The position numbers and the translations under genes are program-made. From positions 2,172,487 to 2,236,486 of the forward strand of contig CP011806.1 of the NCBI GenBank assembly GCA_001664505.1: a DNA stretch of 64,000 bases. The letters are read 5' to 3'. Below the pieces are notes generated by a model. It ran no database searches and had not been told where the DNA came from. It was given only the letters and a program-made list of their open reading frames with translations. This DNA is from Acidobacteria bacterium Mor1. GTDB lineage: Bacteria; Acidobacteriota; Polarisedimenticolia; Polarisedimenticolales; Polarisedimenticolaceae. Shown in pieces: positions 1 through 57,472 of the stretch. Within the stretch, counting starts at the first letter, position 1, and each line of letters starts with the position of its first letter.

Positions 1-1280
1 TCGATCGCCGGGTAACCTTCGGCAACGTAGAGGATCAGGTCGGGGAACTTCTGCTCCCAACCCTCCTGGCCATGCCGCAGGAAGTGCACGGCCAACCAGG
101 CCGTCGAGTAGTAGACGTCATGGCGGGTACCGTAGAACTCATCCCGGCTCGAGCCGAGGAGCTTCTCCAGGGTGATGTTTTCCTTGCGCGAGACCGCCTT
201 GCGCACGGTGTCGGCCGAGATCGACTGGTGGGACTTCCCGATCAGCACGCCCCAAGGCCCCCCGAAGAGCCGTTTCTTCGGGGTTCGGCCGGGAATCAGC
301 ACCCCCTTCTTCACCTGAGAGTTCCCCACGTACTCGGCAAAGCCCTCGTCGAGCCAGCGGGGGAACACCACCCCCGGCTTGGCCAGGTAGCGATCGATGA
401 ACGCGTGGGTCGATTCGTGCAGCATGATCGCGAGCAACGACTCGCGGGTCGGCATCTCGGTATGGAACGCGAGCAATCCCAGTGGCGAGTAGAACCCCGC
501 CGACCACTCCACAGACTGGCCTCGTAGCTGCAGGCCCTGGTACTGGGCCCGCGTCTCGAACATGAAGACCACCACCCGGTACGGCTCGGGCTGGGCCTGG
601 ATACGTCCATCGAGAATACCGTGGAGCGCCTTGAAGGTCGCCTCGATGTTGTTGGCCACCACGGCCGCCATGCCCTCTTGCTGAGAATCGGTGTAGACCA
701 CCACCAGCGGAGTGGCGTGCTGTTGAACCTGTTCCTGCTTGAGCTGATCGTTGGCCAGCGCCGCCAACTTCTCCAGCCGCTTCAGCCGTGCCTCGATCGG
801 CATGCTGAGGATCTCGCGCCGCAAGGACTGTCCGCGGTTCGAGCCTCCGGAGTCCATTGCGGAGCTCAACAGCGACCGGCCGCGCTCCAGCACGAACTCT
901 CCCTCGGGCTGTTCGATGCGCTTGGGAAACTGGACGCCCCAACTGAGTTGGGTCGCCACCGGCTTGCCGTCCTCGAGGGCGGGGGCGTAACGCCAACGCT
1001 CGAGGGTTTCCACGACAACCCGGCGGAAGGCGTCGTCCAGCTCCGACGACGGGCGGATCGAGAGGATCTCGACCTCGGCGACGCGACCGAGCGCATCGAC
1101 CTGGATCTGCACCTCGACCTGGGGCTCCAGATCGGTTCCGGCAGCCTCGATCGGCACGATCAGGTTCGGGGTGTAAAGCGGTACCGGCGGGAAGCGCTCG
1201 GGCTCGGCCGCGGCGGAGAAGGCAAACGGGGCCAGGAGAGCTAACAGCAGCCCCAATGGGCGCAAGCGAGTGCCGGGCAT
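1..1280 (-). CDS. Secreted TonB-C domain / HExxH metallopeptidase-like protein (C-terminus off window)
   Basis: The 426 visible codons start at ATG 1280 (upstream GGGGGAT as ribosome site) with a signal peptide (residues 1-24). Residues about 50-118 resemble a TonB C-terminal domain (VxxxIxVDxxGRVxxVEI...ALEDGKPV). The second half is of DUF1570/gluzincin type: HESTH at 288-292 supplies a HExxH zinc motif, and the Glu in GFAEY about 20 residues later is a likely third ligand. A periplasmic or surface peptidase is plausible but unproven. It lies 35 nt downstream of the selenoredoxin gene and is probably co-transcribed with it. The true frame is open to the window edge, so the C-terminus is missing here. 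Confidence 0.85.
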   Translation of the reverse strand, partial: MPGTRLRPLGLLLALLAPFAFSAAAEPERFPPVPLYTPNLIVPIEAAGTDLEPQVEVQIQVDALGRVAEVEILSIRPSSELDDAFRRVVVETLERWRYAPALEDGKPVATQLSWGVQFPKRIEQPEGEFVLERGRSLLSSAMDSGGSNRGQSLRREILSMPIEARLKRLEKLAALANDQLKQEQVQQHATPLVVVYTDSQQEGMAAVVANNIEATFKALHGILDGRIQAQPEPYRVVVFMFETRAQYQGLQLRGQSVEWSAGFYSPLGLLAFHTEMPTRESLLAIMLHESTHAFIDRYLAKPGVVFPRWLDEGFAEYVGNSQVKKGVLIPGRTPKKRLFGGPWGVLIGKSHQSISADTVRKAVSRKENITLEKLLGSSRDEFYGTRHDVYYSTAWLAVHFLRHGQEGWEQKFPDLILYVAEGYPAI

Positions 1281-50520: not shown

Positions 50521-50994
50521 CTAGCCGCCGGTGACCATCCCGATGCGCAGGCCGTCCACGCCGCTCTTGGCCGAATCGACGATGCGCATCACCGCCTCGT
50601 AGTTCAGACGGTCCTGGGCGCGCAGGAACAGCACGCGGTCCTCGTCGGCCCGGTTCTCGAAGGTCGCGGCCACCTGCCCCGCCAGATCTTCCACCGGCAG
50701 GTAGCGGCCGTTGAGGTCGACCTGGCAGCCGGCGGGAAGCCCGTCCTGCTGCATCGGCTTGGTCGCCGGGCAGGTGGTGTAGTCGATGCCCAGCACGATC
50801 TGCTCGGGACGCTCGGCGTCGGCCACGGTGGCCGGCGCCGTCGACGGACGCGGGATATCCATGTCGAAGCCGCGCATGGTCAGCGGCACGATCACCATGA
50901 AGATGATCAGCAGCACCAACACCACGTCGACCAGCGGCGTGACGTTGATTTCCGAGTTGAGACCGCTTTCGTCTCCGCCGACATCCATCGCCAT
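50521..50994 (-). CDS. ExbD/TolR family protein (second copy)
   Basis: The 157-residue protein has one N-terminal transmembrane helix in the ExbD signature INVTPLVDVVLVLLIIFMV, with the proton-path Asp, followed by a periplasmic domain (LFLRAQDRLNYEAVMRIVDSAKSGG-like). A pair of Cys (YTTCPATK, AGCQVD) in the periplasmic part is unusual and absent from the neighbouring ExbD. With ExbB it would convert proton-motive force to TonB movement. It is the last gene of the tonB-M48-exbB-exbD-exbD operon. Confidence 0.93.
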   Translation of the reverse strand: MAMDVGGDESGLNSEINVTPLVDVVLVLLIIFMVIVPLTMRGFDMDIPRPSTAPATVADAERPEQIVLGIDYTTCPATKPMQQDGLPAGCQVDLNGRYLPVEDLAGQVAATFENRADEDRVLFLRAQDRLNYEAVMRIVDSAKSGVDGLRIGMVTGG

Positions 50995-50997
50995 CGG

Positions 50998-51420
50998 TTA
51001 GCTCCCGGTCTTGACGTCTTCGTAGCGTTCGGTGATCAGGCCGACGTTCTTGAAGCCGGCGCTCTGCACCGCCAGCATCGCCTGCTTGACGGTGCCGTAC
51101 TCCAGGCTCGCGTCACCCTTGATCACGACCTTCCAGTCGCCGCGCTCGGCGGCGGCCTGCTGCATACCCGCCTGGAAGTTCCCGGCGGGCACCTCGTCCT
51201 CATCGATCCAGAACTTCCCGCCCGGCTCGATGGAGACCATGATCTGCTTGCCGTCTTCAGGCTTCTCCGGCGGCTTCTCGGTCACGGGCAGATCGACTTT
51301 CTGCCCGCCCACAAGCTGCGGAGCCATCACCATGAAGATGATCAACAACACCAGCACCACGTCGACCAGCGGCGTGACGTTGATGGTGGAGTTGACCTTG
51401 TCCGGTTTACCGGCTTGCAT
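50998..51420 (-). CDS. ExbD/TolR family protein (first copy)
   Basis: The 140-residue protein has the same STINVTPLVDVVLVLLIIFMV transmembrane signature and a periplasmic domain typical of ExbD (WKVVIKGDASLEYGTVKQAMLAVQSAG). It starts inside the end of exbB (14-nt overlap) and ends 3 nt before the second ExbD. The paired genes may form hetero-dimers, or serve different TonB or Tol partners. Confidence 0.94.
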   Translation of the reverse strand: MQAGKPDKVNSTINVTPLVDVVLVLLIIFMVMAPQLVGGQKVDLPVTEKPPEKPEDGKQIMVSIEPGGKFWIDEDEVPAGNFQAGMQQAAAERGDWKVVIKGDASLEYGTVKQAMLAVQSAGFKNVGLITERYEDVKTGS

Positions 51421-52084
51421 GGGCCGCCCGCGCCTGGCCGCTGCGCTTGTAGAGATGATCGACCAGCTCCGAGGCGGCGCTGCTCATCTCGACGTTGAAG
51501 CGCTCCAGCACGCCGGTGAAGTGGTTGAACGCCATCACCGCCGGCACCGCGACGAAGATACCCAGCGCCGTGGCGATCAGTGCCTCGGAGATACCGCCGG
51601 ACACCGCCGCGACGCCGCCGGAACCGCTCTCGGCGATTCCGGAGAAGGCGTTGATGATGCCGACCACCGTACCGAACAGCCCGATGAACGGCGCCGTCGA
51701 GGCGATGGTCGCCAGGGCGCCGAGCCCCTTCTTCATATCGCTGATCGTCTCGACCTTGGAGCGGTCGAGCGCCCGGGACACCAGTTCGATACGGGTACCC
51801 GCATCCCCTTCGGTCTGGGTCAGCTCTTGCGCCCCGGCACAGACCACCCGGGCCACGTGGGATCCCGAGTGCTGCTGGGCGTTGCGGATCGCGTCCTGAA
51901 GCTTGCCCTCCCGCAGACTGCGACTGTAGGTCGACATGAACTGCGACGACTGGCTCGACGACTGCTTGAAGCGGCGGTACTTGCCCAGGATGACGCTGAC
52001 GGAGTAGATGGAGAGCACCAGCAGGCAGACCATGACGGCCATGCCCACAATCCCCATGCTGCCGAGCATCTCGGAAACGTTCAT
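51407..52084 (-). CDS. ExbB/TolQ/MotA-family proton channel protein
   Basis: The 225-residue protein has a first transmembrane helix near residues 13-32 and the conserved pair in the C-terminal half: GLGALATIASTAPFIGLFGTVVGIINAF and ALIATALGIFVAVPAVMAFNHF. This is the ExbB/TolQ signature, including the pore Thr/Ser residues. It forms the proton channel with ExbD. GGAG lies 6 nt before ATG 52084. Confidence 0.95.
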   Translation of the reverse strand: MNVSEMLGSMGIVGMAVMVCLLVLSIYSVSVILGKYRRFKQSSSQSSQFMSTYSRSLREGKLQDAIRNAQQHSGSHVARVVCAGAQELTQTEGDAGTRIELVSRALDRSKVETISDMKKGLGALATIASTAPFIGLFGTVVGIINAFSGIAESGSGGVAAVSGGISEALIATALGIFVAVPAVMAFNHFTGVLERFNVEMSSAASELVDHLYKRSGQARAAHASR

Positions 52085-52112: not shown

Positions 52113-53870
52113 TTAAGGGAGTTGCGGGGAGTCGGGGCCTTGCTCCTGCGCGGCCTCCTCGTCCTCGATCTCGGCCCGCAGCTCGGCGGGGCGCGCCTCG
52201 CCCGGTTCCTGCACGGCCTCTTCGGCCAGGTTCGGTTCGGCGGAGCCGAAGCGAGCCAGGTAGGGCATCAGCGGAGTGACCTGGAACGGCATCTTCTCCC
52301 GGGCGGAAAGCAGCGCCACCCGGTTGTTCTTCATCAGCGAGATTTCCGCCGTCCAGGGATCGACCTTGACCCGACCGCCCAGGGGCAGGGCCGCGGTCTG
52401 GTTCAGCGCGCCGGGCACGAGGACCGGGGCGGATTCGAGCACCTTGGGCATGCGGTAGAGGGTCGTGCCCTCGGCCATCTCATTGCCGAAGTGGGGGCGG
52501 ATCAGCGCCGGCAGGGTGTTGGCCCGTTCGGACAACGCCTTGAGGAACAATCCGGCGTTGCCCAGCTTGTCGGCGTAGGGAGACGCTTCGAGCAGCAGCT
52601 CCGCCTTGGCGTCAGCCTGGCGATCCTCGGCAGGATCCCGCTTGAACTTGAAGCCCTTGAGCGCTTCCTTGTCGTCGACCAGCATCTGGTCGCTGAAGGC
52701 ATAGCGGGTGTCCAGGCGGTGCCCTTCGAGGATGTGACCCAGCTCGTGGGCCAGGACCATGGCCAGGCTGGCCTCGTCGGGCAGCACGTCGATCAAGCCG
52801 CGACTGAGCACGATGGTGTGGCCGATGGTGAAGGACTCCAGCGGCGTGGTCATCAGCACCCGGCAGCGAACCGGCGGGTCGATGGTCAGACCGTTGGTCA
52901 CCTCGAGGTTGGCGACGACGGTGGCCAGCACCTCGTCCACTTCACCCTCGGGGGCCAGCAGGCCCGCCTTCTGCAGCCGGCGCAGCACGTTCTCTTCCGC
53001 TTCCCGCGCCCAGGCCCGGGTGCTCTCCACCGGGGAGATTTGTCCCGGAGTCTCGCTGCGATCGTCGGCCAGCTCCGACTCGATCATGATCTTGGCGAAC
53101 TCTTCTTCCTCGGAGGTCGCGCTGACCTTGTAGCCCCACAGGCGGGTCTGCCCCTGGTGGGTCAGGGTGGTCTTGCGGCTGATCTGCTCCGATTCCTCGG
53201 TGTAGACATAGGCCGGGAACCAGATGCCCGGCGCCATGTTCAGGCGCCAGCTGTCGAAGTGCAGATCCGAGCCGAAGGCGGAACCGTAGACTCCGTTGAA
53301 GCGCACGATGTGGAACTGCTCGTCCTCGACCCAGATGCGGCCGGTGAAGCGGTTGCTGCGGGCCCGGCCGATATCCTTGGGGACCACGTCGAACACCAGG
53401 GTCCGGATCTCACCGAGGAAGTCCCGGCGGATGAAGTCGAAGTCGTAGTACTGGCGATCCAGGCCGCCCTGATCGAGCACCACCATCTTGGCGAAACCGT
53501 CGGACTGCAGCGACGCCGAGTAGAAGTCGTCGAACAGGGTCTGCAGCTTGCCCGAAGAACCCTTGCGGGAGCGTTTGCGCTTGGTCGCAGCCGCCTGGCC
53601 GCCGTCACGCAGGTCGAGGCGACCCAGGAAGTAGCGGTCCTTGACCGGCAGGAAACCCATCTCGGTGTCCGGCTTGACGGTCTGCAGGTAAGTCTCGACC
53701 AGCGGGTTGTACTCGCTGAGCCGGCTGGCCATGGCGCGCTCGTTCTCGACGATGCGATCGAGCACCTGGTCCAGGCGAGACGTTCCTTCGCTCGCCGCGG
53801 CCATGCCGCTGCAAAGCGCGATCAACGCCAGCACCGACAACCATCGGAAGTTCGACATGTGGACTCGCAC
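52113..53870 (-). CDS. Secreted M48-like metallopeptidase
   Basis: The 585-residue protein has a signal peptide (residues 1-26). Residues about 30-250 form an uncharacterised beta-rich domain (DRQYYDFDFIRRDFLG, FHIVRFNGVYGS) resembling outer-membrane-lipoprotein sorting folds. Residues about 300-430 are the M48 domain, with HELGH at 375-379 and EDRQADAKAE as the third-ligand segment. It is placed between tonB and exbB, so a role in maturation or quality control of the TonB-dependent envelope machinery is plausible. GTG 53870 has GGGAGG 9 nt upstream. Confidence 0.88.
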   Translation of the reverse strand: MRVHMSNFRWLSVLALIALCSGMAAASEGTSRLDQVLDRIVENERAMASRLSEYNPLVETYLQTVKPDTEMGFLPVKDRYFLGRLDLRDGGQAAATKRKRSRKGSSGKLQTLFDDFYSASLQSDGFAKMVVLDQGGLDRQYYDFDFIRRDFLGEIRTLVFDVVPKDIGRARSNRFTGRIWVEDEQFHIVRFNGVYGSAFGSDLHFDSWRLNMAPGIWFPAYVYTEESEQISRKTTLTHQGQTRLWGYKVSATSEEEEFAKIMIESELADDRSETPGQISPVESTRAWAREAEENVLRRLQKAGLLAPEGEVDEVLATVVANLEVTNGLTIDPPVRCRVLMTTPLESFTIGHTIVLSRGLIDVLPDEASLAMVLAHELGHILEGHRLDTRYAFSDQMLVDDKEALKGFKFKRDPAEDRQADAKAELLLEASPYADKLGNAGLFLKALSERANTLPALIRPHFGNEMAEGTTLYRMPKVLESAPVLVPGALNQTAALPLGGRVKVDPWTAEISLMKNNRVALLSAREKMPFQVTPLMPYLARFGSAEPNLAEEAVQEPGEARPAELRAEIEDEEAAQEQGPDSPQLP

Positions 53871-53887: not shown

Positions 53888-55096
53888 CTAGGCGAGCTGA
53901 AACACGATGCGCAGCCGCGCGGTGTGGTCCACCGCCTGGCCGTCGCGTCGCGCAGGTTTGAATTTGATCTTCTTAGCCGCCGTGATGGCGGCCTCGTCCA
54001 GACCGTGTCCCAGAGACCCCACGACTCCGAGAACCTCGACCTTTCCGTTTGCGATGAACTTGACTTCCAGCACCACCTCACCCTCGACGCCGAGATCTCG
54101 AGCCTTCTGGGTGTAGACGGGCTGGGGTTTGGACAGAATCTCGACCGGAGTGTCCGGTTTCTCACCCGGCAGCTTGCGCTTGCGCTTGGGCTGGGCCACC
54201 GGCTCGCTGTTGCCGAACCCACCCTGCTTCACGCTGCCGCCGGGGCGGCGGTTCGAGGCGGCCTTGGTCGTACTGCCGAAACCACCCTGGCTGACCTTGC
54301 CCTGGGGCCGCCGGGCAGCCTGCCGGGGGGCGTCGTCGGCGAAGTTGGCGGCGGTTACCGTGCGCGCCTCGCGGCTCGGCGTCTTGTCCTTGGCCTCTTC
54401 GGTGAAACCGGTGTTGGTCACCCGGCGGGTCGGCGCCGTGCGTTTCTGCCGCTTGGCATCGTCGGTGAAGTTGGCGCTGGCCACGATGCGGCGATCGCCG
54501 TCGGCAGTCGGCCGGGCCGCGCTCTTGACCTCGAAGCCGCCCAGGTTGGCCTGGCGGGTCGGCTTCGGCGCCTCGCGCCTGGCCTCGGCCATGGCAAAGG
54601 AGCCGGTCTCGGTGCGACGGGGCTCCCGCTTGGGCAGCGGCTTGGCGTCCTGTTGCTCGAACAGGTTGGTCTTGACCTTCCGCTTCGGCGGCTCCGGCTT
54701 CTTGGCGACCACCGGCTCGGGCTTCGGCTCCGGCTTCGGTTCGGGCCGGCGCGCCGGCTCGGGCACGACCGGCTCCGGTTCGGGCTCCGGCTCGACGATC
54801 GGTTCCGGCTCCTCGAACACTTCCTGTTCGGGTTCCGGTTCGGGCTCGGGGATCGGTTCCGGCTCCGGTTCCTGCAGCTCGGCAACGAGCTCCGGCTCCA
54901 GCTCCGACTCCGGATAGAACACGACCTCCACCGGTTCCGGCTTCTCTTGATGCGGGAACAGGCGGGCGGGCAGCACCAGCAGCAGGGCGATCACGAAAAT
55001 GTGAATCCCGATACTGATCGCAATGGTGGACAGACGCGACGACGCATCGGCAGGACTTACACGTTCGTGTACTTCCGGTTGCGTTTTCGTAGCCAA
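53888..55096 (-). CDS. TonB-family energy transducer with repetitive linker
   Basis: The protein is about 402 residues if started at TTG 55096; in-frame starts up to 55183 are possible. One transmembrane helix ([20 protein letters not shown]) is followed by a Pro/Glu-rich then Pro/Lys-rich spacer, eight Phe-anchored 21-residue repeats, and a TonB C-terminal domain ([22 protein letters not shown]...[20 protein letters not shown]). It transmits proton-motive force to outer-membrane receptors. It heads the operon with the M48 peptidase, ExbB and two ExbD genes. Confidence 0.9.
54164..54673 (-). repeat. Eight tandem 21-residue repeats in the TonB linker
   Basis: Phenylalanines recur at nearly exact 21-residue spacing (offsets 21, 21, 22, 21, 21, 21, 21), from the Phe codon at 54661-54659 to that at 54217-54215. 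Each unit has small residues (G, N, A, S) before Phe, an Ala about 5 residues later, then Arg/Lys/Pro-rich sequence, and often Val before the next unit, as in TNTGF, TAANF, SQGGF and KQGGF. The DNA repeats are degenerate, so the period is kept at protein level. Confidence 0.85.
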
Positions 55097-55361
55097 GCTT
55101 CGAACGCCTCGCGATACCGGCCAGGCCGGAAACCAACGTTTTCCCTCGGAGTCTTCGACTCCACGGCCGCCCCCCCGCACCACGCGGGTCGTCGACGGCT
55201 ATTTGGTTTGCAGGAAGCACGCCATCCTCGTTCACGCGGCCGGCCGCGTTTCTGAGGACAGGTCCTCCCCTTCTTCCGGGAACTATCGGGACTGGTGGGA
55301 AACATCAGGACCGGAGGTAGGACCGGTCAAGAGCTGGCGGGGAAAACTGGGATTGGAGGAA

Positions 55362-57266
55362 TTATCGACTCGGTAATCCGAGCCGGCGGGAGATTTCGTT
55401 GCGGCGCGGATCACCGCTCAGTCCGTCCAATCGCGGGTCGACCTGCAGGAACATCAACCAGGGGTCGCGATAGTCCCAGGCCCGCTCCACCGCGTCGAAG
55501 GCGAGTTCCTTCTCCCCTGCCTCAGCGGCGGCCATCGCCAACTCGAGTTCCCCGGCAGGGCGGCGTTCCCCGTCCCGGAGCTCCCGTAGACGCCGCTGCC
55601 TCAACGCCGCCAGGATCTCTCCCGCTTTGCGGCCCTCGAACTCCCGGGCGACCTCCGGCTGTGCGTAGGCGGTGTAGGCCAACGCCTCTCGCTCCCGCCC
55701 GAGGGCGACGAGGCCGTGGTACATGCAGGCCTCGGCCCAGCCGTAACCCTGCCCTTCGAGAATCCCCCGGCACTCGGCGAGGCCTTCCTCGTAGCGATCC
55801 GCGAACAGGTAGTACCAGCCCAGGTCCGACAACACGCTGAGGGAAACCGGATCCAGCTCCGCCGCGCGCCGGACCGCCCCGATGGCCTCGTCATGCCGCT
55901 CCAGCGCGGCCAGGGCCCCCGCCCACCAGTGGTAGGCCATGGCGTAGTTCGGAGCGAGTTCGACCGCTCTGCGGAACTCCCGATCCGCCCCGGTCGCGTC
56001 GAAGTCTCCGTAGAGCCGGACGAACCCGAGCGCCGCGTGAGCCTCGGGCGAGGACGGATCCAACTCGAGGGCACGCTCCGCAGCACGGCGGGCCGCCGGA
56101 AAGGTCTCCATCGGTCCCAGCGCGGAACCCCAGGTGCGCAGGTTGTGGACGTTGGCCAGCCCCGCCCACGCCGCGGCATAGTCCGGGTCGAGGGCGATCG
56201 CCTGCTCGAAGTGGGCGACCGCCTGGGGATAGCGCTCGGACTGGAAGGTGTTCCACTCGTAGCGCCCTCGCAGGTAGGCCTCGTAGGCCCGGGTGTTGCG
56301 GGTGCCGGCCCGAGCCTGGGCCAAGGGTTCGTCGGGCAGCAACTCCAACGCCAGTGCCTGGGCCACCCGCACCGCAACCTCACCCTGAACCTGCAGGACG
56401 TCATCGAGAGGAACGTCGTAGGCATCACTCCAGAGGTGGGTCTGATCCGAAACCTGGATCAGCTGGGCGGTAACCCGGAGCCGGTCCGCCGACGCGCGCA
56501 CGCTGCCTTCGATCACGTAGTCCACTCCGAGTTCCTTGCCGATCACGTCGACGGGCTCGCTGGAATCCCGATAGTGCATGGCCGACATCCGGGCGATCAC
56601 GCCGAGACGCTCGGGCTGAAGCCGGCCCAACTGCATGATCAACTCCTCGGTCATGCCGTCGGCAAAGAAGCGTTTCTCCTGGCCGTCATCCAGATCGACG
56701 AAGGGCAGCACCGCCAGCATGACCCGCCCGGTTGCGGCACCGGCGGATTGGGGTGCGTTGCGTCTGGCGTCGGCCAACCACCAGGCGGCCAACAGCAACA
56801 GCGGCAACAACGCGATCCACGGCGTCCAGCGGCGAACCCGGCCTCCGGCGGAAACGCGGTTGTCCTTCGCGTCGACCGCCCCGAGGGCTGCGGCGCTCGG
56901 CGCCGACGCGGCGGACGGTACCGGCTCCACCGGCGCGATGAAGCGATACCCCCTGCGGGGCAGGGTCTCGACGAATCGCGGGCTGTCGGCGGAATCTCCC
57001 AGGCTCTCCCGCAGCTTGCGCACGGCGGCGTTCAGGTTGTTGTCGAAATCGACGAAGGTGTCGTCACCCCAAAGCCGCAGGCGGAGCTCGTCCCGGGTGA
57101 CCAGCTCGCCGGGGCGCTCGAGCAGCGCCGCCAGCACCTGGAAGGGCTTCTCCGGCAGGTGGACACGGGCGCCGCGCTTGGTCAACTCGCCTGTGTCCGG
57201 AGAGACCTCGAACACGCCGAATCGAAGGTGCCCCGCCGTGTGGGGCCTGGCCGGTCGTTCACCCAT
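55362..57266 (-). CDS. CadC-like winged-helix regulator with TolB-like and TPR domains
   Basis: The 634-residue membrane regulator starts at ATG 57266 (AGGAAGG upstream). Residues about 12-115 are an OmpR/PhoB-type winged helix (GELTKRGARVHLPEKPFQVLAALLERPGELVTRDELRLRLWG and RYRFIAP-type wing). One transmembrane helix lies near 145-165 (WIALLPLLLLAAWWLA). A TolB-like domain follows (VLPFVDLDDGQEKRFFADGMTEEL...YVIEGSVR), then TPR repeats to the end. It probably senses an envelope signal and binds DNA. It is divergent from the S9A gene at 57473, its most likely target. Confidence 0.92.
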   Translation of the reverse strand: MGERPARPHTAGHLRFGVFEVSPDTGELTKRGARVHLPEKPFQVLAALLERPGELVTRDELRLRLWGDDTFVDFDNNLNAAVRKLRESLGDSADSPRFVETLPRRGYRFIAPVEPVPSAASAPSAAALGAVDAKDNRVSAGGRVRRWTPWIALLPLLLLAAWWLADARRNAPQSAGAATGRVMLAVLPFVDLDDGQEKRFFADGMTEELIMQLGRLQPERLGVIARMSAMHYRDSSEPVDVIGKELGVDYVIEGSVRASADRLRVTAQLIQVSDQTHLWSDAYDVPLDDVLQVQGEVAVRVAQALALELLPDEPLAQARAGTRNTRAYEAYLRGRYEWNTFQSERYPQAVAHFEQAIALDPDYAAAWAGLANVHNLRTWGSALGPMETFPAARRAAERALELDPSSPEAHAALGFVRLYGDFDATGADREFRRAVELAPNYAMAYHWWAGALAALERHDEAIGAVRRAAELDPVSLSVLSDLGWYYLFADRYEEGLAECRGILEGQGYGWAEACMYHGLVALGREREALAYTAYAQPEVAREFEGRKAGEILAALRQRRLRELRDGERRPAGELELAMAAAEAGEKELAFDAVERAWDYRDPWLMFLQVDPRLDGLSGDPRRNEISRRLGLPSR

Positions 57267-57472
57267 GGGCCTTCCTGGAGTGGGCTTCGAGTCTAGCACC
57301 GGAGCCCCTTCGAACCGTGCTTCCCGGCGCTTAAGCCGAGCCCCCAAACTGCTGAATAAAAAAGGCTTATGGATTCACCTGACTTTCAGGCGGAGTGCAG
57401 GCCCCGGCCCTTGGGCCTGGACCCGATTCCGGGCAGTTTCGAGACCTCGATCACCCGAACAAGGAGGCAACC

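What the first reader, a model, noticed from the sequence alone, without database searches (positions are those of the whole stretch)
54164..54673. TonB linker built from eight 21-residue Phe-anchored repeats
Phe recurs every 21 residues (one 22) over 148 residues between the Pro-rich spacer and the TonB C-terminal domain. The period is much stricter than general low complexity, and I know no such array in a characterised TonB. It may be a multivalent peptide that binds ExbD, peptidoglycan or a periplasmic partner.
Basis: seen in the sequence. Interest (0 to 1): 0.6.

Follow-up and report, generated by a model that had tools for sequence, protein, structure and literature searches.

The report
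Phe-anchored docking array in TonB linker
A bacterial protein that carries energy between the two cell membranes has a floppy middle part with a short sticky motif repeated every 21 residues; related bacteria keep this pattern and pair the gene with one protease-like gene, so the motifs are probably a docking rail for that partner.

Summary
Eight Phe lie 21,21,22,21,21,21,21 residues apart in the TonB linker, with no other Phe between residues 124 and 375; shuffles never give this. It is neither chance nor recent slippage. Orthologues in the window's own order carry 3-5 copies 22-25 apart, and most Acidobacteriota orthologues carry the same VxxGGF-type motif, 20-27 apart. So the array is an old, conserved feature of one Acidobacteriota TonB subfamily; only the strict 21 and the count of eight are special to this genome. 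The array is predicted disordered, has no Pfam match and does not match the known ExbD-binding D-box. New: the next gene, a LolA-like/M48-peptidase protein, lies directly downstream on the same strand in 134 of 135 orthologous loci holding both genes, and the pair is present or absent together in 394 of 396 phylum genomes. Phe anchors are missing only where the peptidase zinc site is destroyed (0 of 85 intact, 34 of 44 destroyed), and there a V-x-L-G array with the same spacing replaces them. Best reading: tandem docking motifs for the M48 partner. Binding is untested.

The parts
53888..55183 (-). TonB-family protein carrying the array (431 aa from the GTG listed by the ORF tool; the true start may be further in, e.g. 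the TTG at LATKTQPEV)
   Evidence: Pfam TonB_C 353-430, E 1.2e-15
54959..55054 (-). N-terminal membrane helix, residues 44-75
   Evidence: AlphaFold2 helix, pLDDT about 70-95
54914..54931 (-). Single D-box-like motif VEVVFY (residues 85-90, flanked by Pro), likely ExbD site
   Evidence: pattern scan; motif definition from PMC10907165
54686..54907 (-). Glu/Pro- and Lys/Pro-rich spacer, residues 93-166
   Evidence: sequence
54191..54697 (-). Array of eight Phe-anchored units, residues 163-331
   Evidence: predicted disordered
53891..54151 (-). TonB C-terminal domain, residues 345-431, with LGHGLDEAA signature
   Evidence: Foldseek to FoxA-bound TonB CTD 6i97
52113..53870 (-). Adjacent partner gene: exported LolA-like domain (about 32-250) plus M48 peptidase domain (about 280-540); HELGH present, third zinc ligand Glu replaced by Asp416
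51407..52084 (-). ExbB/TolQ-type motor protein
   Evidence: Pfam MotA_ExbB 2.5e-32
50998..51420 (-). ExbD/TolR-type protein 1
   Evidence: Pfam ExbD 9.8e-25
50521..50994 (-). ExbD-type protein 2
   Evidence: translation; its orthologues lie beside the pair in L046, L053 and L183

Best explanation
The repeats are a tandem array of short, disordered, hydrophobic-anchored docking motifs (consensus about V-x-x-G-G-F-G, spaced 20-27 residues) in the periplasmic linker of an Acidobacteriota TonB subfamily. Their main partner is most likely the LolA-like/M48 protein encoded by the next gene. Several copies along the rod would hold one or more partner molecules on TonB, between the inner-membrane motor and the outer-membrane transporters, so that this peptidase (or, in some lineages, its inactive form) acts on or near TonB-dependent receptors, or on TonB itself. 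Shown: the array, its conservation, the obligate gene pair, the predicted partner fold, and the anchor change together with zinc-site loss. Inferred: physical binding, which partner domain binds, and the biological outcome. Strict 21-spacing and eight copies are a lineage-specific expansion, not a requirement.
For: Array is non-random. Conserved in orthologues: gaps 22-25 in the window's order. In a set of 109 orthologues, 102 were scored (7 gave no C-terminal landmark) and 92% of gaps between anchors were 19-28. Anchors F196, F302 and F323 are invariant in a 67-row alignment in which most of the linker is not. Disordered in the AlphaFold2 model, no contact with the own C-terminal domain. Partner gene directly downstream on the same strand in 134 of 135 loci holding both; pair present together in 57, absent together in 337, M48 alone in 2, TonB alone in 0 of 396 genomes; G114 carries the whole pair twice. 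Partner fold: LolA/LolB-like half-barrel plus BepA-like M48, both folds with known peptide- or protein-binding members (passages of PMC7400510; abstract of PMC8423444). Phe anchors absent in 0 of 85 pairs with an intact zinc site and 34 of 44 with a destroyed one; all 3 Phe losses on the tree lie on destroyed-site branches. The Phe-less linkers keep V-x-L-G motifs, 105 of 106 gaps 19-25.
Against: No binding was measured or modelled; complexes could not be folded here. Gene adjacency can reflect co-regulation only. The tree test is weak: 3 independent losses, the tool's own sign test cannot reach significance (p 1), and my branch-length estimate is about 0.05, or 0.11 without the long-branch row G262. 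Ten pairs with a destroyed zinc site keep the Phe array, and Phe-less lineages keep the partner, so neither catalysis nor Phe itself is strictly needed. Between Phe and Phe-less lineages more conserved positions changed in the M48 domain (10 of 41) than in the LolA-like domain (4 of 40), a difference too small to name the binding domain.
Confidence: 0.48

Rival explanations
1. The units are substrate or cleavage sites: the M48 partner clips TonB in the array, setting TonB length or turnover, and Phe is kept as the recognition residue.
For: Phe lost only where the zinc site is destroyed; M48 enzymes act on extended strands (BepA edge-strand, abstract of PMC8423444).
Against: Ten pairs with a destroyed site keep Phe; Phe-less lineages keep an array with changed anchor rather than losing it, which simple loss of cleavage would not require; cutting the linker would uncouple TonB.
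Confidence: 0.15
2. Extra ExbD handles: each unit is captured by the ExbD dimer, letting the motor grip TonB at successive points.
For: ExbD is known to take one TonB strand by strand addition (PMC10907165); exbB and two exbD genes follow the pair in the window.
Against: The D-box pattern occurs once outside membrane helix and C-terminal domain, and in none of the 8 units; exbB/exbD adjoin only 2 of 80 named orthologues, against 78 of 80 for M48.
Confidence: 0.1
3. The array binds another periplasmic target (peptidoglycan, the transporters, another TonB molecule), and the M48 gene is linked only by expression.
For: The window's array is strongly basic (41 K+R against 20 D+E in 178 residues), which could favour anionic cell wall.
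Against: Basic charge is not a feature of the Gly-rich Terriglobia arrays by inspection; no contact with own C-terminal domain predicted; does not explain the near-perfect pairing with M48.
Confidence: 0.17
4. Spacer only: a long extended linker whose periodicity is a by-product of unit duplication, without binding role.
For: Eight units in the window against 3-5 in its order; two unit pairs are more alike (48% and 52% of residues), as after duplication.
Against: Invariant Phe and near-invariant V-Q-T-G-G-F-G-D-P motif in a disordered linker across the phylum; spacing kept while spacers diverge; anchors switch as a set to V-x-L-G.
Confidence: 0.1

Closest known systems
E. coli TonB (and its D-box)
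   Same: Membrane helix, one D-box-like strand, Pro-rich spacer, TonB C-terminal domain
   Different: E. coli has a single linker Phe (SPFEN) and no array; the D-box binds ExbD (PMC10907165), the array does not match it
Other TonB-family proteins of the same genome
   Same: TonB_C domain (16 matches)
   Different: None of the 9 other proteins read in full (10 loci, two giving the same protein) shows a run of Phe at about 21 residues
RseB/MucB with RseA/MucA (LolA-fold protein binding the periplasmic tail of a membrane protein)
   Same: A LolA-like domain is the predicted fold of the partner's N-terminal half; works-like analogy for binding a flexible tail
   Different: No sequence family match; partner also has an M48 domain; weak structural scores (Z about 5 for RseB/MucB, 7.6-9 for LolB/LolA types)
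BepA / LoiP (periplasmic M48 peptidases)
   Same: Partner's C-terminal half: BepA Z 15.1; LoiP is the NCBIfam model matched by most members, 56 of 58; in the window protein it scores 16.4 against a cut-off of 365
   Different: LolA-like domain instead of BepA's TPR (TPR recalled); zinc site lost in many lineages; paired with tonB

Membership tests
TonB energy transducers | TonB C-terminal domain | tested here: met
   PF03544 58.2 bits over cut-off 24.6; Foldseek 6i97, TM 0.85 by target
TonB energy transducers | single N-terminal membrane helix and Pro-rich periplasmic linker | tested here: met
   helix 44-75; EP/KP-rich stretch
TonB energy transducers | drives TonB-dependent transport with ExbB-ExbD | not testable with these tools
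   exbB and two exbD downstream in the window; 24 plug domains in the genome
D-box (ExbD-binding motif) | hydrophobic pattern at 1,3,5,6 of a short strand flanked by Pro | tested here: not met
   for the eight units: none matches; VEVVFY at 85-90 does
M48 peptidases (partner) | M48 domain | tested here: met
   PF01435 in 58 of 58 aligned partners; BepA Z 15.1
M48 peptidases (partner) | HExxH and a third Glu zinc ligand | tested here: inconclusive
   window: HELGH met, third ligand Asp416 instead of Glu; site lost in 44 of 129 pairs with readable site
LolA/LolB/RseB-like fold (partner N-domain) | half-barrel antiparallel sheet | tested here: inconclusive
   Z 9.0 (3bk5), 8.6 (3buu), 7.6 (LolB 1iwm), about 5 (RseB, MucB); no Pfam match

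The most novel reading that the evidence does not exclude
Acidobacteriota run a Ton-coupled peptidase: their TonB linker is a multivalent rail that carries a dedicated LolA-like/M48 protein towards the outer membrane, and rail and rider co-evolve, the anchors switching from Phe to V-x-L-G after the rider loses its zinc site.
Probability: 0.35. Interest if true: 0.78.

Novelty: new variant of a known kind. Interest (0 to 1): 0.6.

Why it matters
The TonB linker is usually treated as a passive rod. A phylum-wide array of conserved motifs, locked to one protease-like gene, suggests that in an abundant soil phylum the rod is also a scaffold, and it links energised uptake to outer-membrane proteolysis or quality control. 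It gives a concrete, cheap test: does a 40-residue peptide bind the product of the next gene?

Tried and rejected
Recent DNA slippage: rejected, no tandem DNA repeat in the array and low unit identity. Folded repeat domain or solenoid: not supported, pLDDT 38-50 in the array. Docking on own C-terminal domain: no contact in the model, a weak negative because the model is unsure in this region. Extra D-boxes: pattern scan negative. Array general to TonB: the other TonB ORFs of the genome lack it; L045 gave no readable ORF, and L038 and L039 returned the same protein, so 10 loci are 9 proteins; 4 of the 16 TonB_C matches were not fetched as loci and not read. A search outside the phylum failed for want of a genome handle; the one scan over all genomes returned the best 80 of 202 matches, nearly all with Acidobacteriota-type titles (one is titled Betaproteobacteria, one only 'bacterium'), so presence elsewhere is not excluded. 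The cut-offs that define 'array TonB' (57 genomes) and 'partner' (59) in the co-occurrence count were set after seeing the lists (partner: clear gap between about 1e-70 and 1e-21; TonB: set at 7e-34, next row 5e-30). In the zinc-site table 6 of 135 pairs were dropped because the site fell in a gap or off the contig (G208, G360, L050, L079, L095, L105). The Phe-anchor pattern counts 7 of the window's 8 (the first is preceded by Leu). Literature: searches found no paper on this array or pair (listings read only); the library holds open-licence papers only.

Full report
What is there. The finding lies in a TonB-family gene on the minus strand, 53888-55183. The protein has a membrane helix (44-75), a D-box-like strand PVEVVFYP just after it, a Glu/Pro- and Lys/Pro-rich spacer, the array (about 163-331) and a TonB C-terminal domain (345-431). 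The genes after it on the same strand are an M48-type protein (52113-53870), exbB (51407-52084), exbD (50998-51420) and a second exbD (50521-50994). The start codon is uncertain.

The period is real. Phe sit at 175, 196, 217, 239, 260, 281, 302, 323 and nowhere else between 124 and 375. Random placement of eight Phe never reached this in 1,000,000 trials; lag-21 identity exceeds all 2000 shuffles, with or without Phe. Around each Phe the window's units share V at -5 (6 of 8), R at -7 (6 of 8), P at -9 (5 of 8) and often G or N at -1 and -2. DNA units are only 43% alike on average, above shuffled codons (33%), with two closer pairs, units 4 and 6 and units 7 and 8. So the units are old or under selection, with some later duplication.

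Orthologues keep it. In the window's order, the TonB of G003, G004, G002, G007 and G009 has 3-5 anchors with gaps of 22-25, and the last anchor stands 52-53 residues before the first Phe of the C-terminal domain in all, as in the window. Two other genomes of the window's family (G001, G005) and two of its order (G006, G008) gave no match to this TonB profile. The 80 named loci have Acidobacteriota-type titles, bar L053 (titled only 'bacterium', the window's family) and L116 (titled Betaproteobacteria), which groups inside the others in the tree. Their linkers hold the motif V-Q-T-G-G-F-G-D-P-N-G and variants. Over 109 orthologues put together, 7 gave no C-terminal landmark and were not scored; of 102, 99 have 3-7 anchors by a strict pattern and 3 have none; 92% of gaps are 19-28. 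The unscored seven include Ile-anchored linkers (such as VASAGIPG) of one family. The window's other TonB proteins that were read show no such run, nor does E. coli TonB.

What it is not. AlphaFold2 with 67 sequences leaves the array disordered and out of contact with the C-terminal domain. Pfam has nothing on it in 67 of 67 members. The D-box pattern described for E. coli TonB (abstract and passages of PMC10907165; passages of PMC12215075) fits residues 85-90 and none of the units. A survey of TonB/TolA linkers (passages of PMC12204202) does not contain the word Acidobacteri and in the passages shown describes Pro-rich, helical or disordered linkers without arrays.

The partner. The M48-type gene adjoins the TonB in 78 of 80 named loci; the other two end at a contig edge soon after the TonB. 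In all loci gathered (140), 135 hold both genes, and in 134 M48 is directly downstream on the same strand; the exception, L205 of G198, has an M48 upstream. Many of the later loci were fetched around coordinates where both had matched, so the unbiased figures are the 78 of 80 and the genome counts that follow. By contrast exbB/exbD adjoin 2 of the 80, plus G003. Searched over the same 396 genomes of the phylum, strong matches to the partner (59) and to this TonB (57) coincide in 57; the two left are G214, where the M48 lies at a contig start, and G201, where it is a fragment with a stop. G114 carries two whole pairs. The partner has an apparent signal peptide (by eye), a LolA/LolB-like domain and a BepA-like M48 domain. 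The window's copy has HELGH but Asp for the third ligand Glu.

Array and peptidase change together. I read the zinc site (positions 375, 376, 379, 416; Asp at 416 counted as intact) in 129 pairs: 85 intact, all with three or more Phe anchors; 44 destroyed, of which 34 have two or fewer. Fisher's test (1.5e-22) ignores kinship. On a tree of 115 partners built without those four columns, Phe is lost three times and the site changes seven times; all Phe losses fall on destroyed-site branches, which make up 36% of tree length, so chance gives about 0.05 (0.11 without G262, a long branch). The tool's sign test on three pairs has no power. In the Phe-less linkers the array is not gone: V-x-L-G motifs recur, usually five, with 105 of 106 gaps of 19-25; Phe-type linkers have none in 72 of 100 and one or two in the rest. 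The anchor changed, the rail stayed.

Reading. A set of evenly spaced, conserved hydrophobic motifs in a disordered tether, inherited with one adjacent exported protein, is most simply a docking rail for that protein. LolA-fold proteins bind flexible tails of membrane proteins (MucB on MucA, passages of PMC7400510), and the M48 enzyme BepA takes an unstructured stretch along its edge strand (abstract of PMC8423444), so either domain could do it. Binding, and what the partner does once on TonB, are inferences.

Novelty. TonB, LolA-fold and M48 are known kinds; the array and the obligate pair appear undescribed in the searches made, in an open-licence library only.

Noticed in passing
window 933-1154 (-): A second, weak TonB_C match (39.5 bits) in a 629-aa open frame within the window (G000:C1:2173419-2173640).
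   Followed up: no
window 52113-53870 (-): M48 partner has Asp416 where 57 of 58 aligned members have Glu as third zinc ligand; activity of this copy is doubtful.
   Followed up: partly
window 50521-51420 (-): Two different exbD genes in a row; this arrangement beside the pair was seen only in the window's own family.
   Followed up: partly
window 55362-57347 (-): Protein with a winged-helix (Trans_reg_C) domain and TPR repeats (CadC-like) upstream of tonB on the same strand.
   Followed up: no
L116: A record titled Betaproteobacteria carries this pair and groups within Acidobacteriota rows in the tree; probably a mislabelled bin.
   Followed up: partly
G114, G198 (L194, L195, L204, L205, L232): Genomes with more than one copy of the pair; in G198 one M48 stands upstream of its TonB.
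   Followed up: partly
G000 whole genome: 16 TonB_C matches and 24 plug domains, so many transporters share several TonBs.
   Followed up: no
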